A stretch of DNA of 64,000 nucleotides from Trichocoleus desertorum ATA4-8-CV12 (GTDB lineage Bacteria > Cyanobacteriota > Cyanobacteriia > FACHB-46), in the NCBI GenBank assembly GCA_019358975.1, contig JAHHIL010000023.1:1-64000 (forward strand), in the 5' to 3' direction. The position numbers and the translations under genes are program-made. The notes under the pieces were generated by a model. The model was not told where the DNA came from, ran no database searches, and worked only from the letters and a program-made list of their open reading frames with translations. Shown one piece after another: positions 52,297 to 57,664 of the stretch (position 1 is the stretch's first letter; every line of letters starts with the position of its first letter).

Positions 52297-53253
52297 TTAC
52301 TGTCTACTGCGATCGCTCCCTAGAAAAAAGTCCACTTTTTCCAGATATTGTAAGCACCGCTGATACTGGTCTGGATAATCCTTAGCTACCCGTGTCTCTA
52401 GGCGTTGAGCGATCGCGGCATCTCGTTTTGCTTCTCCAATCAAGTGAGTATAACCTACCTCAACGGGTCGTTTAGAGCCAAAAGCAGTTTCTGGAGAATC
52501 AAACAAGCACTGCATAGTGACATCTGGAAAACGGGACTCGGCAGACTGTTGATGATATTCCAGGCAAGCTGCTAGGAAATATTGTTCAATTAGGAGAGAG
52601 TCGCCCAGCTTGTTATCCATTAGGGCAAAAGCTGCCTGGTTGCCAGAGTTTGCAGCAATTTGCAAGGCCATATCGGCATAATGGTGAATAAAGTCTACAT
52701 GGTTGCCACCGATAATCCCGCAGCAATAAGCTAAATTGCGACGACCCGAAAAATACCAGTGCCACTCCTTCGGTAGCCAGCCATTGTTACTTTTTACGCG
52801 CTGATCAAACAGTTCAGGTCGATACCACCAACAAGTCGCATGATGTTCCCCAAAGACAAATGACTCCGGATTCTGCGTGAAAACCGGAGCTGAATCTAAT
52901 TCTGGAGGGAGCGGCTTCCACAAAAACACATCATTATCGACATGAACAAAGGGCTGGCTTTGACTACGGTAGGCCCACAGTTTGCCCAAAATCCACCAAT
53001 CCGGATCTTGGTGCTGGAGAGCATTCAATTCGGTAGATACCGTATCAAACTCTAGACCCAAACCATCCACCAGCATCTTCGCCCCTGCATCATCAGTCAC
53101 TAGCGCAGTTTCTGGATAATGTTTTCTTGCTGTTTCGAGGGATAAAATCCAGGCCAGTAAATGATGCTTCTCAGTGAACCAAATCGTCTGCCGATGGGCC
53201 CGGAAGGGTTTTGTCCAGAACGACCACACGGAGCGAGTGATGGATTGGGTCAT
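52297..53253 (-). CDS. DUF6734-like protein, possibly glycosyltransferase-fold
   Basis: A 318-residue cytosolic protein. It opens SVWSFWTKPFRAHRQTIWFT, then LALVTDDAGAKMLVDGLGLE-type sequence, and the central PFVHVDNDVFLWKPLPPELD carries a DND motif like the metal-binding DxD of GT-A glycosyltransferases. From memory this resembles the DUF6734 family. Whether it transfers a sugar is unproven. ATG 53253 overlaps the stop of the upstream IPT/CARDB gene (ATGA), so it is translated with it and is the last gene of the cassette. The terminator lies after it. Confidence 0.55.
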   Translation of the reverse strand: MTQSITRSVWSFWTKPFRAHRQTIWFTEKHHLLAWILSLETARKHYPETALVTDDAGAKMLVDGLGLEFDTVSTELNALQHQDPDWWILGKLWAYRSQSQPFVHVDNDVFLWKPLPPELDSAPVFTQNPESFVFGEHHATCWWYRPELFDQRVKSNNGWLPKEWHWYFSGRRNLAYCCGIIGGNHVDFIHHYADMALQIAANSGNQAAFALMDNKLGDSLLIEQYFLAACLEYHQQSAESRFPDVTMQCLFDSPETAFGSKRPVEVGYTHLIGEAKRDAAIAQRLETRVAKDYPDQYQRCLQYLEKVDFFLGSDRSRQ

Positions 53254-54794
53254 AAAAGACTGCTCCCGATCGCGCCTCCAGAGCCGTAGTAACTGGTTGC
53301 AGCGACGGTAAATGAATCTGTGGTCGTGACAGTACCGCCTCCAGTTTGAACCGTGATAGGCCAGTTGCCTGACGAAATGGAAGGCGCTTTGACAACAATT
53401 TGCGTTGCCGTAGGTGTGCCCACAATCGTGGCGTTGGTAGCCCCAAACCGAACCGAAACTTCGCCAACATTCAAGTAGTTGCCCACCAACGTCACATTAT
53501 CTCCCGCTCTGCCTGACTTCGGCGAGAACTGATTGGGCGACGGGTTGAAAACAGGAGCAGGGGGCGGAGGCGGGGCAGGAGGTGGGGGCAAACGATTGAC
53601 CACAAACTCGCGAATGAAGCTGTTATTGGTTGGCAATAGATCAGAGATTTTGTTCTCTGGATCTGCTGTGAAACGAATTCTGTAAACCCCAGGTTGATCA
53701 AACTTGTATTTAAAGCTGATTGAGTTATCGGTTGATTGCTGCTGCGATCGCAGTGCTGCATGAGCGTAGACGACTTGTTGGATCGCCTGCATTGATTCCT
53801 GAATTTCGTCTCCCTCGTCCTCAAACCTGAGCATGGTTTCAGTCTTAGGACTGGGTAGCGGCCACCTCCGCACCCTCACCTGAAAGAGCTGCCAACTCAC
53901 ATTGAAGTTAGTAGCATCGACGGTTCCTTGATTACTCAAAACTGCCCGAAACGTCGCTTCCTGCCCCTGGATCAGCGGTAGGGATGACTCTAAAACAATA
54001 TCTTTCACATAGAGATCCCAGACATCTGCTCGCCAAGGCAGAGAATTGATTTTCTGATTCGCGATTTTGGCAAATACTAAGCCACTGCCAATGACATTTC
54101 TGGGCATCTCCACCGTGAGACGGGTACTGGTGCGATCGCTCACCTTGGCTGCTTGGTCTTGAAAGTAAACTTCTACTGAGTCAGTACCACCCAGATTGCC
54201 GCCGTCAATCACCACAATACTACCTGGAGCCCCACTCTCTGGTTTAATTTGGGTGATAAACGGTAACTGTCGCCACAGCCGCAGCCGCGCTTCGTCTAGC
54301 CCACTCTTAGATGAGATCTCTGTCAGCATGGCAGGTGTTAGCGTTACCATTTCCAAGTCATTTACAGAATGGATGCCAACCGTTTTTAACTTTTGAATCT
54401 CTGAACTCTGAATATCCGGTAAGGTTTCTAACGTTCGATATTCGTTAGTTTCTAGGTCAATAGACTTGCGAGTTTCTTGGACTTGCGTATCCAATGCTGG
54501 CGTGAAACCTAGTTTGAGCACGGTAGCCCCAGTTTGTCCAGGCGGAGCAGTGCGAAACATGAGATGCCCTGCGGGGTCACGGCGCACATCCACTTGGAGA
54601 TCTAGGTTTAACTGGTTCACCATCATTGACAGCCGCCGATTTTGCGACTTGAGGATCAAAGTATCTTGGGCTTGATCCAACTCTGCCGTAATGATTTGAA
54701 TTAACTCCGACAACTGCCACTCATCATTGGGCAGCGCTGATGGTTCGTTGGAGAGAGACTCATTGGAGATGAAGGGGCGGTCGCTATTGGTCAC
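53250..54794 (-). CDS. IPT/TIG and CARDB multidomain protein of unknown function
   Basis: A 514-residue protein without a signal peptide, starting at GTG 54794. Domains: N-terminal region (about 25-110) with WQLSELIQIITAELDQAQD and VNQLNLDLQVDVRRDPAGHL then KLGFTPAL, a pattern close to trypsin-co-occurring (Trypco2-like) domains; a helix-hairpin-helix-like stretch SSEIQKLKTVGIHSVNDLEM (about 130-185); an IPT/TIG domain (ITQIKPESGAPGSIVVIDGG, 190-255); a CARDB-like Ig domain (270-390); a Pro-rich linker PPPPAPPPPPAP; and a second IPT/TIG domain (FSPKSGRAGDNVTLVGNYL) to the end. It looks like a modular scaffold or adaptor. Its stop overlaps the next start, so coupling with the 318-residue gene is certain. 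Confidence 0.75.
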   Translation of the reverse strand: MTNSDRPFISNESLSNEPSALPNDEWQLSELIQIITAELDQAQDTLILKSQNRRLSMMVNQLNLDLQVDVRRDPAGHLMFRTAPPGQTGATVLKLGFTPALDTQVQETRKSIDLETNEYRTLETLPDIQSSEIQKLKTVGIHSVNDLEMVTLTPAMLTEISSKSGLDEARLRLWRQLPFITQIKPESGAPGSIVVIDGGNLGGTDSVEVYFQDQAAKVSDRTSTRLTVEMPRNVIGSGLVFAKIANQKINSLPWRADVWDLYVKDIVLESSLPLIQGQEATFRAVLSNQGTVDATNFNVSWQLFQVRVRRWPLPSPKTETMLRFEDEGDEIQESMQAIQQVVYAHAALRSQQQSTDNSISFKYKFDQPGVYRIRFTADPENKISDLLPTNNSFIREFVVNRLPPPPAPPPPPAPVFNPSPNQFSPKSGRAGDNVTLVGNYLNVGEVSVRFGATNATIVGTPTATQIVVKAPSISSGNWPITVQTGGGTVTTTDSFTVAATSYYGSGGAIGSSLL

Positions 54795-54842
54795 AGAAGC
54801 TATGTCACGTTGAGATGGATATCACTGAACAAAAGTTCAGCC

Positions 54843-55178
54843 TTAAGGATTTAGCTTTAAGGTAACTCTAAAATGGCTCAATGCGTTAACCGACTTTGTG
54901 ACTAGGGGCGAGGGTAGGGTAGTCATCAGTCGAGCGGTTGCTAGCGAACCTGTGGAGCGTGGGGAAAGATGAAAATGCACAGGGAGATCGATAGCAATCT
55001 CATCTAAAATCAGGCTCGGCAAAGAGAGTTCCGAAGTGAGTTCCGAGGCGGATTCAGGCAAATTCGCTTGAGCCAGGAGATCTGGTAGGTCGTCCGGTTC
55101 TACTCCTTGAGTCGCTGGGATTTGGGACATCTCCCCGGCGGTCATCACGACTAGGTCACTAAAGTGGATAGAAGGCAT
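54843..55178 (-). CDS. Small acidic beta-rich hypothetical protein
   Basis: A 111-residue protein from ATG 55178 (an in-frame upstream start at 55232 is weak). It begins MPSIHFSDLVVMTAGEMSQI, is acidic in the middle (PDDLPDLLAQANLPESASEL) and ends with strands LDEIAIDLPVHFHL and SHFRVTLKLNP. The end pattern (x-I-x-L-D-L-x-V ... V-x-L-x-L-x-P) recurs in the upstream and downstream proteins of this cassette. No family recognised. It lies 48 bp before the IPT/CARDB gene. Confidence 0.5.
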   Translation of the reverse strand: MPSIHFSDLVVMTAGEMSQIPATQGVEPDDLPDLLAQANLPESASELTSELSLPSLILDEIAIDLPVHFHLSPRSTGSLATARLMTTLPSPLVTKSVNALSHFRVTLKLNP

Positions 55179-55244
55179 GTCGTTTCTACAGATATAAATT
55201 TGCAGTTGAGGTTTTAGAAGTGCTGGTTGCAAGTAAAATTTAAA

Positions 55245-55282
55245 CCTAAGCCCCAGCCCCTTCCTGGGTGTGGAAGGGGAGC
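55245..55282. repeat. Palindromic repeat, copy A
   Basis: CCTAAGCCCCAGCCCCTTCC then GGAAGGGGAGC with a 7-nt loop; the perfect stem CCCCTTCC/GGAAGGGG lies at 55257-55264 and 55272-55279. It follows the stop of the 412-residue gene (minus strand) and may also end transcription. A second copy is at 60924. Confidence 0.6.
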
Positions 55283-55294
55283 CAACTACTTCGT

Positions 55295-56533
55295 CTAGAC
55301 GATGGGAGCTAGATCAGACTCTTTTACTGAACCTGTACCGTCGTTTAGCGGCTTGTAATCTGTTTTGAACTTCAGGGTGACTTGCCCACTCATTTGAGTC
55401 AGGGTTTCAATGTTGCCCACAGAAGTTTGATCTACAGTGCTGACGCTGAGGTTGTTATAGTAGGCACTGACGCTAGCATTGCCCCAACCCCAGGTTGCGC
55501 CTGCCTTGACCGAACCTCCATAACTTGTGCTATTTCGCTTAGCAGTGTTCGTGCTGCTTGACTCAGTAGAGGCAACTCGGAAAATTAGCTTGGTATTAAT
55601 TTCTCCCTCGGTGATGACAATCCGAGCCATCCCTTCGCGTGCCATCTGCCGCAGTTGGTTCATGCCATCACGGGCTAGACCATGCTTGATGGCAGTCTGA
55701 ATGGTACTGATATCAGTGTTGATGTAGACTTTGGAACTATTGGCCTCAATGCCATCGGCCTTATCAAAATCGCTTTCAAAGAGTTCTTTGACTTTTGTTT
55801 CATCAATGACATTAGTGGTGGACTTAACGATGTCATCTTGCCCGAAAAGCCTCAAGATCTCCGCTCGGTGTCCACCTGTAACAGGTGCCATGTAGTAGAG
55901 GCGCTTGAGATGGTAAGCTCGTCGAGGCTCACCCACTACGACTCCGAACGCTTTGTCCTTTCCAGTAGTATCCTTTTCTGTAAACGTCAGTTGGTCAAGT
56001 TTTTCTGCGACTGCATCGTCTGATACGTTGTCAGAAGCAAATTCTTTCAGGCTCTTGGTCAGCTCAGCAACCATCTCACTGTAAGCTTTCATCTGATCAA
56101 TAGTCGCTTTGATGATCGAGTTGAAAGTACCTGTGATTAATCCTTGAGTGAATTCAACAAACGCCATCCCGGTTTGCTGGGAACCTCTCACCGCTGCATC
56201 GATCGCCCGCTCTGTCGTACCATTACCATTACCCATTGCCAAGTTTTCGTTAATTGGAGCCACCAAGCCCATCGGCATTGATTCCATATTGGCATCTTGG
56301 GGTCGCAGGAGTTCTAACAACGTATCCTGCACAACTGTGGTAACTCCCTGGCGTAGCAGTTCACGCTCTGCATCATCACTGCCAATTTTCTCAACACTAC
56401 GCTCAATCACTTCCATCAAGCGGTCTACCCCACCTGCGACTGCTTCATCTACAGGGGCGATCGCTTCGAGCTGAGGTTGTAGCTCTGAGTTATCAGTGTT
56501 GGAATCGTTGTTCTGCTTGCGATTGCGAGCCAT
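55295..56533 (-). CDS. Unknown 412-residue protein, helical N-half and Gly/Ser beta C-half
   Basis: ATG 56533 is preceded by AAGGAGAT at ideal spacing. Residues 1-190 are helical and Glu/Asp-rich (VDRLMEVIERSVEKIGSDDA, TTVVQDTLLELLRPQD, TKSLKEFASDNVSDDAVAEK). The middle holds RRAYHLKRLYYMAPVTGGHR and AEILRLFGQDDIVK. The C-terminal part alternates small and hydrophobic residues (SYGGSVKAGATWGWGNASVS, AYYNNLSVSTVDQTS), as in membrane-inserting beta-hairpins of pore-forming proteins, then ends TLKFKTDYKPL. No signal peptide. I know no family. It sits between the broken papain-like gene and the small beta-rich gene. Confidence 0.7.
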   Translation of the reverse strand: MARNRKQNNDSNTDNSELQPQLEAIAPVDEAVAGGVDRLMEVIERSVEKIGSDDAERELLRQGVTTVVQDTLLELLRPQDANMESMPMGLVAPINENLAMGNGNGTTERAIDAAVRGSQQTGMAFVEFTQGLITGTFNSIIKATIDQMKAYSEMVAELTKSLKEFASDNVSDDAVAEKLDQLTFTEKDTTGKDKAFGVVVGEPRRAYHLKRLYYMAPVTGGHRAEILRLFGQDDIVKSTTNVIDETKVKELFESDFDKADGIEANSSKVYINTDISTIQTAIKHGLARDGMNQLRQMAREGMARIVITEGEINTKLIFRVASTESSSTNTAKRNSTSYGGSVKAGATWGWGNASVSAYYNNLSVSTVDQTSVGNIETLTQMSGQVTLKFKTDYKPLNDGTGSVKESDLAPIV

Positions 56534-56674
56534 GTTTAAGATCTCCTTAGTTTTTGATTAATAGAAAGCAATTCAACTGAGAAGCAGGCGAAACAGGAGA
56601 GATTACTCTCAGGCTGCTGACTGTTGCAGTGAAAAAACTTTTAGCTAGGACTATGACGCTGAAGATCATTGGGT

Positions 56675-57459
56675 TTAGCAACTCAGGCCAAAGACGCCAG
56701 TATCTACCCAATCTTGTTTTAGAAGCACCCACCAGTCCACCGAAAGCCCACCCTGAATATATTTGTAGGGCAACCAGCCATACCCTTCTTTACCCCAACT
56801 CGTACCCCAGGAATTTCGGATTAGGATCGCTCCTTTGCTCTTGCTTCCCCCTGCTTTAGGATGCTCAATCACCATAGAATCGTCGTAGCCAACTGCAACC
56901 ATTGCATGACCTCCTTTGGGGCGATCGCTGTTGCATGGATAGGGAAGTTGACCCAAGGTTTCAGGTTGCGTGGCATGTAGTAAAGGCGCATCAAAAAGCA
57001 TGGTGCCAAACGCCAAGGGAAAGCCTGCCGCCAATTGAGTTTTGATAGTTAACAACAATTCATCAACTTGGATGTTTGGGGTATCTAAGCGGACATAATT
57101 GATCGACTTATAATTGGCCTCAATAAGTTTTTGGTGGCTTTATAGAGAAACAAGCGGGAGCGGTGGCTGTACTCGTCGAGAGCTTTTTGCTCCAAGTACT
57201 CTGCGATCGCAGTAACGACATGGGCTGTACAAGCTTCTACTTTGCCTTGATCTTCAACCGGAGAGAAACCCGGACGTAGATCGACAAAAGCGGGCAGGTC
57301 TAGTTTCTTGAACTGCTTTTTTTCTACGAGTTCTGCGGAGCGACCCAGGAGAGTTTCCATCATGGGTTGCACGACTCGGCTGGTCAACCTGAGATCTCGG
57401 TGATCTGGATAATCACGGACCCAGCCCATGCTATGTTGACGGCTAGCAATTCCATTCAT
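56675..57459 (-). pseudogene. Papain-like C1 protease with internal deletion
   Basis: The first 124-codon frame starts ATG 57459 with MGWVRDYPDHRDLRLTSRVV, PAFVDLRPGFSPVEDQGKVE and the catalytic Cys in EACTAHVV, then ends soon after LFLYKATKNLL. The second frame resumes about 57118 with NYKSINYVRLDTPNIQVDEL and carries the catalytic His in GGHAMVAVGYDD and the Asn in LIRNSWGTSWGKEGYGW. Compared with full-length relatives, the middle stretch of several dozen residues is missing and the frame is shifted by the same event. So all three catalytic residues survive but the gene cannot give one chain. Confidence 0.75.
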
Positions 57460-57481
57460 GTAGCGTTGTGACTTTCAATTT

Positions 57482-57664
57482 TCAGGATGAGTGAAGTAAC
57501 TTGGGGGGTAGATGCCGAGGCTCCCAACTTGATCGAGCGAAAAAGTTGAAAATCGCCTCCGAGTCGGTCTTGAGGTTAGCCTCAAAAACCAACGCTAGGT
57601 GGACTTTAATAGGCTTCAACCCTAGATTGCAGTATTCCGTATTTTCCTCAGCCAATTCCTGCAA
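57482..57664 (-). CDS. Short frame of unknown function, possible trypco-like fragment
   Basis: A 60-residue frame upstream of the broken protease. Its centre LKPIKVHLALVFEANLKT shows beta strands like those of neighbouring cassette proteins, then an unrelated-looking end. It may be the truncated start of a small partner gene. No ribosome binding site. Confidence 0.3.
   Translation of the reverse strand: MQELAEENTEYCNLGLKPIKVHLALVFEANLKTDSEAIFNFFARSSWEPRHLPPKLLHSS

What the first reader, a model, noticed from the sequence alone, without database searches (positions are those of the whole stretch)
52297..57664. Uncharacterised cassette around a broken papain-like protease
Six minus-strand genes in order: short frame, papain-like protease (now deleted in the middle), 412-residue helical/beta protein, small beta protein, IPT/CARDB scaffold with a Trypco2-like N-terminus, and DUF6734-like protein (4-bp overlap with the scaffold). 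Three members share a strand pattern LDLxV...LxLxP. Trypco domains are known from predicted ATP- or protease-based conflict systems, where they accompany peptidases. This may be an undescribed cyanobacterial relative, with a protease, scaffold and a pore-like protein.
Basis: inference. Interest (0 to 1): 0.65.

Follow-up and report, generated by a model that had tools for sequence, protein, structure and literature searches.

The report
Conserved protease cassette with broken protease
A conserved and apparently undescribed set of bacterial genes pairs a protein-cutting enzyme with a scaffold, a small partner and a new protein family; it occurs in cyanobacteria and some proteobacteria, and in this genome the enzyme gene has been broken by a deletion or, possibly, an assembly error.

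Summary
The cassette is real; five of the six genes hold up, the 60-residue frame does not. The same order (papain-like C1 protease, 412-aa protein, 111-aa protein, Trypco2/TIG/CARDB scaffold, DUF6734) recurs in two other cyanobacteria with an intact 307-aa protease; in the window the protease has a 139-bp frameshifting deletion.

There the peptidase is an S8 subtilase. The papain clade nests among S8 lineages, so the protease was exchanged while its partners stayed.

Trypco2 kinship of the scaffold is supported by profile comparison, though the window copy is below Pfam's cut-off. No NTPase is conserved beside it. The 412-aa family matches nothing in Pfam, NCBIfam, PHROGs or PDB sequences. 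The pore idea does not hold as a family trait.

Most likely: a cytosolic protease complex in which scaffold and small protein hold the protease on its 412-aa partner, in a conflict-type role. The wiring and role are inferred, not shown.

The parts
57085..57459 (-). 5' half of a broken papain-like (C1) protease; holds the region with the presumed catalytic Cys (EDQGKVEACTAH)
   Evidence: 83-84% identical to residues 1-115 of the intact 307-aa orthologue; out of frame with the 3' half after a 139-bp deletion
56675..57127 (-). 3' half of the broken C1 protease; holds the presumed catalytic His and Asn (GGHAMV, RNSWGTSWG)
   Evidence: Pfam Peptidase_C1 1.6e-6; 86-87% identical to residues 159-307 of the orthologue
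55295..56533 (-). 412-aa protein ('p412'), member of an unnamed family (helical region with F125, F128, L132, F137, Q147; then G301, R304, G310 and a predicted long beta hairpin)
   Evidence: no Pfam, NCBIfam or PHROG family and no PDB sequence match worth the name; relatives in Cyanobacteria, Rhodobacteraceae, Burkholderia; AlphaFold2 model of low confidence, mean pLDDT 58
54843..55178 (-). 111-aa small protein with the 'DLPxxV' motif, possibly a diverged Trypco2-like beta module
   Evidence: small proteins at the same place in the other quartets; the sets match each other by hhalign at E 2e-4 to 3e-4 against reversed controls 0.04-0.37; match to Trypco2 itself weak, E 0.002
53250..54794 (-). 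514-aa scaffold: Trypco2-like N-terminus (about 24-82), a linker that looks helix-hairpin-helix-like (by eye), TIG, CARDB, proline-rich linker, second TIG
   Evidence: Pfam TIG and CARDB; Trypco2 by hhalign
52297..53253 (-). DUF6734 protein, last gene; invariant HxDxDVF motif suggests a GT-A-like glycosyltransferase (inference)
   Evidence: Pfam DUF6734 9e-57; alignment with D106 and D108 invariant

Best explanation
It is a papain-type variant of a protease cassette whose core is four genes: a p412-family protein, a small 'DLP' protein, a Trypco2-like TIG scaffold and a peptidase. Shown: the four genes travel together across three bacterial classes; the peptidase is S8 in most lineages and C1 in the window's clade; in the window genome the peptidase is broken while the partner genes are intact and conserved. 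Inferred: the window proteins have no obvious signal peptide, so the complex is cytosolic; the Trypco2-like scaffold and the small protein hold or gate the peptidase; the peptidase cuts, or is positioned by, the p412 protein, a presumed oligomer; the output harms an invader, a rival or the cell itself, as in other protease-based conflict systems. In the window genome the cassette would be inactive, or would use a protease encoded elsewhere.
For: Order conserved in L032 and L034, and in L033 without protease; the quartet in L037, L073, L076, L104 and, spread out, in the S8 clusters L038, L039, L042-L044, L103 (contigs of L041 and L045 end early). S8 relative at 14 loci, C1 only in window-type loci. 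Tree: the five window-type p412 rows join the Okeania (S8) and RM1_1_8 rows with 100/100 support among S8-bearing loci, so the protease was swapped. Trypco2 relation. dN/dS against L032 0.06-0.21 for all parts (dS is near saturation), 0.065-0.069 in the protease remnants, so the break is recent or an assembly error. Enzymes in the G264 and Burkholderia clusters: Amidase_2, Peptidase_C70 and C92 in both, M15 and trypsin in G264, guanylate cyclase-AAA and patatin downstream in Burkholderia. No strongly hydrophobic N-terminus in the parts. Trypco2 is described as a neighbour of trypsin-like peptidases in predicted conflict systems (PMC7159879).
Against: No experiment and no defence-database match. 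No NTPase seen conserved beside the core. L033 and L035 keep the partners with no such protease next door, and L070 too as far as its contig goes, so the partners may have a protease-independent role. No direct sign of interaction among the proteins. Similarity of the small protein to Trypco2 is weak.
Confidence: 0.42

Rival explanations
1. A protease-activated pore: the peptidase cuts the p412 protein, whose long beta hairpin then inserts in a membrane, much as bacterial gasdermins are released by a protease.
For: The AlphaFold2 model has two strands of about 39 residues (303-341, 356-393), and Foldseek's top matches include hairpins of pore-forming proteins and ring proteins. The window-type hairpin has a 24-residue uncharged stretch.
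Against: Mean pLDDT 58, and under 50 in the hairpin tip; VIA-align finds nothing above Z 4.4. S8-type cyanobacterial members of the large clusters have charged, mostly basic hairpins with uncharged runs of only 7-18 residues, and the most amphipathic windows of the window type lie at the strand bases, not in the tip.
Confidence: 0.15
2. Part of a large particle or secreted machine: p412 paralogues are ring subunits of an assembly that delivers peptidoglycan hydrolases or other effectors.
For: Clusters in G264 and Burkholderia each hold four p412 paralogues that pair one to one in the tree, beside a multi-enzyme cell-wall protein; cyanobacterial S8 clusters carry a variable gene with a lectin or peptidoglycan-binding domain; DUF6734 also sits at the end of an eCIS-like cluster in G108; Pvc16_N in 9 of 14 carriers against 153 of 390 genomes, p 0.048.
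Against: The window genome and G002 have no Pvc16_N hit; no tail, sheath or secretion gene recognised in the window cassette; no PHROG match.
Confidence: 0.2
3. A housekeeping or surface-glycan cassette: DUF6734 as glycosyltransferase acts with the scaffold, and the protease is a dispensable processing enzyme that is being lost.
For: DUF6734 overlaps the scaffold by 4 bp, has an HxDxDVF motif and is in all window-type loci that reach that far; protease broken or absent in several.
Against: DUF6734 is missing from all S8-type quartets and is in only 5 of 145 genomes; Pfam GT8 finds nothing in the six genomes tried; a patchy distribution, 14 of 390 genomes, is unlike housekeeping.
Confidence: 0.13

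Closest known systems
Trypco1/Trypco2 with trypsin-like peptidases in MoxR-vWA-VMAP ternary conflict systems (Kaur et al. 2020, PMC7159879)
   Same: A Trypco2-like domain and a peptidase encoded side by side; effector-type enzymes near some clusters
   Different: Peptidase is S8 or C1 rather than trypsin or caspase; the Trypco2-like part is fused to TIG/CARDB; the p412 family is always present; no conserved MoxR, vWA or other NTPase seen
Bacterial gasdermin operons (protease plus pore-former)
   Same: A protease encoded next to a protein with a possible membrane-active part
   Different: Not compared directly; no gasdermin among the fold matches listed, and a pore property is not supported across the p412 family
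Nuclease-protease pairs recurrently acquired by antiviral systems (PMC12799240, start of abstract only read)
   Same: A protease kept with a client it may activate
   Different: No nuclease recognised here; protease types differ (theirs trypsin-like)
DUF2589 (PF11655) proteins
   Same: Resemblance by eye: helix then beta region, and a small neighbour with a Trypco-like look
   Different: Profile comparison does not support homology (hhalign E 0.32)

Membership tests
Trypco-peptidase conflict systems (Kaur et al. 2020) | Trypco1 or Trypco2 domain | tested here: inconclusive
   Window scaffold 15.9 bits, below Pfam's 24.2; profile-profile E 1.5e-5 with clean reversed controls; G045 scaffold 25.4 bits, above cut-off
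Trypco-peptidase conflict systems (Kaur et al. [quoted passage not shown]
   Partner is C1 in the window type and S8 elsewhere
Trypco-peptidase conflict systems (Kaur et al. 2020) | MoxR/vWA/VMAP or other NTPase core in the neighbourhood | tested here: inconclusive
   No such gene recognised in the window flanks by reading the ORF list, but the flanks were not profile-searched; a DUF5682 gene lies near the L032 copy only; an AAA-cyclase protein lies downstream in Burkholderia
Papain family (C1) | Profile match and Cys/His/Asn catalytic residues in one chain | tested here: not met
   Motifs present but split between two frames in the window; in one chain in L032 and L034; nearest solved structure to L032 is 3ois, 5.6e-27
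DUF6734 (PF20508) | Pfam match above cut-off | tested here: met
   193 bits against 27
GT8 glycosyltransferases | Pfam Glyco_transf_8 match | tested here: not met
   No hit at E 1e-3 in six genomes, five of which carry DUF6734; DxD-like motif only by eye; fold not testable, model failed
DUF2589 (PF11655) | Profile similarity to PF11655 | tested here: not met
   No PF11655 hit in G000; hhalign of the p412 family with three DUF2589 proteins E 0.32
Pore-forming beta-hairpin proteins | Amphipathic membrane hairpin and oligomeric pore | tested here: inconclusive
   Low-confidence model and charged hairpins in many members

The most novel reading that the evidence does not exclude
The p412 / small DLP protein / Trypco2-TIG / exchangeable protease quartet is a new protease-based conflict or cell-death system without a dedicated NTPase, shared by Cyanobacteria and Proteobacteria, with p412 as its client or oligomeric effector.
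Probability: 0.3. Interest if true: 0.8.

Novelty: new variant of a known kind. Interest (0 to 1): 0.52.

Why it matters
Protease-plus-partner modules have repeatedly turned out to be immune or cell-death devices. A core conserved across three bacterial classes, with a protein family that none of the libraries searched names and with a protease that has been swapped for one of another catalytic type, is a compact and testable new case, and would give Trypco2 a setting without the usual NTPases.

Tried and rejected
DUF2589 as the family of the 412-aa protein: rejected, hhalign E 0.32; the DUF2589 neighbour as Trypco-like: not supported. Pore as family trait: not supported. Fold search with the p412 model: only hairpin or helix matches, best VIA Z 4.4. 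DUF6734 model: mean pLDDT 40, unusable, not searched. GT8 membership: no hit. eCIS dependence: weak enrichment (p 0.048, one of several tests), and both window-genus carriers lack the marker. Virus or plasmid origin of the window type: no relative on viral contigs with A2; a broader alignment could not be used; plasmids hold S8-type relatives only. First genome-contig scan with the scaffold found nothing. PADLOC: no match. Papers: none names DUF6734, two name Trypco. For the p412 orthologue in L034 the longest frame (473 aa) was cut to the homologous start.

Full report
What is there. The window holds five genes on the minus strand from 57459 to 52297: two out-of-frame halves of a papain-like protease, a 412-aa protein (p412), a 111-aa protein, a 514-aa TIG/CARDB scaffold and a DUF6734 protein, with a 4-bp overlap between the last two.

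The broken protease. Orthologues of 307 aa are intact in L032 (same genus) and L034 (G137, which matches the named record of Leptolyngbya sp. FACHB-8, L071). Against L032 the window lacks 139 bp in the middle and the frame shifts; the Cys half and the His/Asn half survive in different frames. The remnants still show dN/dS near 0.07, so the break is recent, or it is an assembly error that I could not test. The window genome has another, 37% identical C1 gene on contig C3. L033 and L070 have the partners and no adjacent protease.

Conservation. In L032 and L034 the order protease, p412, small protein, scaffold, DUF6734 is the same; L033 has the last four. A profile of the p412 family finds 16 of 390 Cyanobacteria genomes, of which 14 are solid and two are marginal matches. 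Named relatives include Okeania, Ruegeria spongiae and an uncultured Rhodobacteraceae bacterium, Fremyella/Tolypothrix plasmids and a Burkholderia pyrrocinia plasmid. In Okeania, G264 and Burkholderia the order is p412, small protein, scaffold, S8 subtilase; in Ruegeria a frame between p412 and scaffold encodes the small protein. The small proteins share a DLPxxV-like motif. In the larger cyanobacterial S8 clusters the same four parts are spaced by other genes.

Protease exchange. A profile of the S8 proteins hits 14 loci; the C1 profile hits only the window type. L035 has neither in its 15-kb contig. The p412 tree puts the window-type clade (100/99) with Okeania and RM1_1_8 (100/100) among S8-bearing loci. 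The simplest reading is one replacement of S8 by C1. The root is a midpoint, so direction is inferred.

Trypco2. Pfam gives the window scaffold 15.9 bits, the Burkholderia scaffold 16.6 and the G045 scaffold 25.4 in the genome search, above the 24.2 cut-off. hhalign of six true Trypco2 proteins against scaffold N-termini gives E 1.5e-5, reversed controls 0.11 and 0.28. These E-values are for single comparisons. The small proteins, pooled, are closer to the scaffold set (E 3e-4) than to Trypco2 itself (E 0.002).

The 412-aa protein. It matches no family at a meaningful score. The model has mean pLDDT 58 with a long beta hairpin. Foldseek lists pore and ring proteins for the hairpin, with low TM-scores; VIA-align stays at Z 4.4 or less. 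Charge patterns speak against a membrane hairpin in the members from the large S8 clusters.

Wider setting. G264 and Burkholderia clusters hold four p412 paralogues that pair by tree and a large protein with Amidase_2, C92 and C70 domains. S8 clusters in cyanobacteria hold a variable gene with ricin-type lectin, fascin-like or peptidoglycan-binding domain. An eCIS marker is in 9 of 14 carriers against 153 of 390 genomes (hypergeometric p 0.048), but not in the window genome or G002. DUF6734 was found in 5 of 145 genomes, four in this cassette and one at the end of a cluster with Baseplate_J and Tail_P2_I.

Mechanism. Shown are the linkage, the exchange of protease type and the loss of the protease in this genome. 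Inferred are the cytosolic place (no hydrophobic N-terminus), the scaffold and small protein as holders of the protease, p412 as client or oligomer, and the conflict role.

Verdict. It is best compared with Trypco-peptidase conflict modules; it fails at least one of their defining features (peptidase type) and another is in doubt (NTPase core), so I do not file it as a member.

Noticed in passing
L037:900-18998 and L104:3340-19080: Cyanobacterial and Burkholderia clusters with four p412 paralogues that pair in the tree and a large cell-wall enzyme protein (Amidase_2, C92, C70; also M15 and trypsin in L037); points to horizontal transfer of a complex machine.
   Followed up: partly
L038, L039, L042, L043, L044 (ends of the S8 clusters): Genes at the end of S8 clusters share short motifs like NRLLALE near the N-terminus and AFDFDEAIELTY; could be a docking or export tag. 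No Pfam match in the two tried.
   Followed up: no
L044:12255-13589, L041:4757-7003, L045:5426-6868, L042:12197-13672: A variable gene near S8: peptidoglycan-binding, ricin-type lectin or fascin-like N-terminus; coiled-coil-like remainder in some.
   Followed up: partly
L092:390-10081: DUF6734 at the end of an eCIS-like cluster (Baseplate_J with LysM, Tail_P2_I with NHL repeats).
   Followed up: partly
L077:8000-9953, L078:7124-8415: DUF2589 genes beside a small protein that looks Trypco-like by eye; profile comparison did not support it.
   Followed up: yes
L073:1587-2685: Tandem duplication of the small DLP gene in Okeania.
   Followed up: no
L035:7902-9902: Scaffold frame runs on into a solute-binding-protein (SBP_bac_5) match; possible fusion or assembly chimera.
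   Followed up: no
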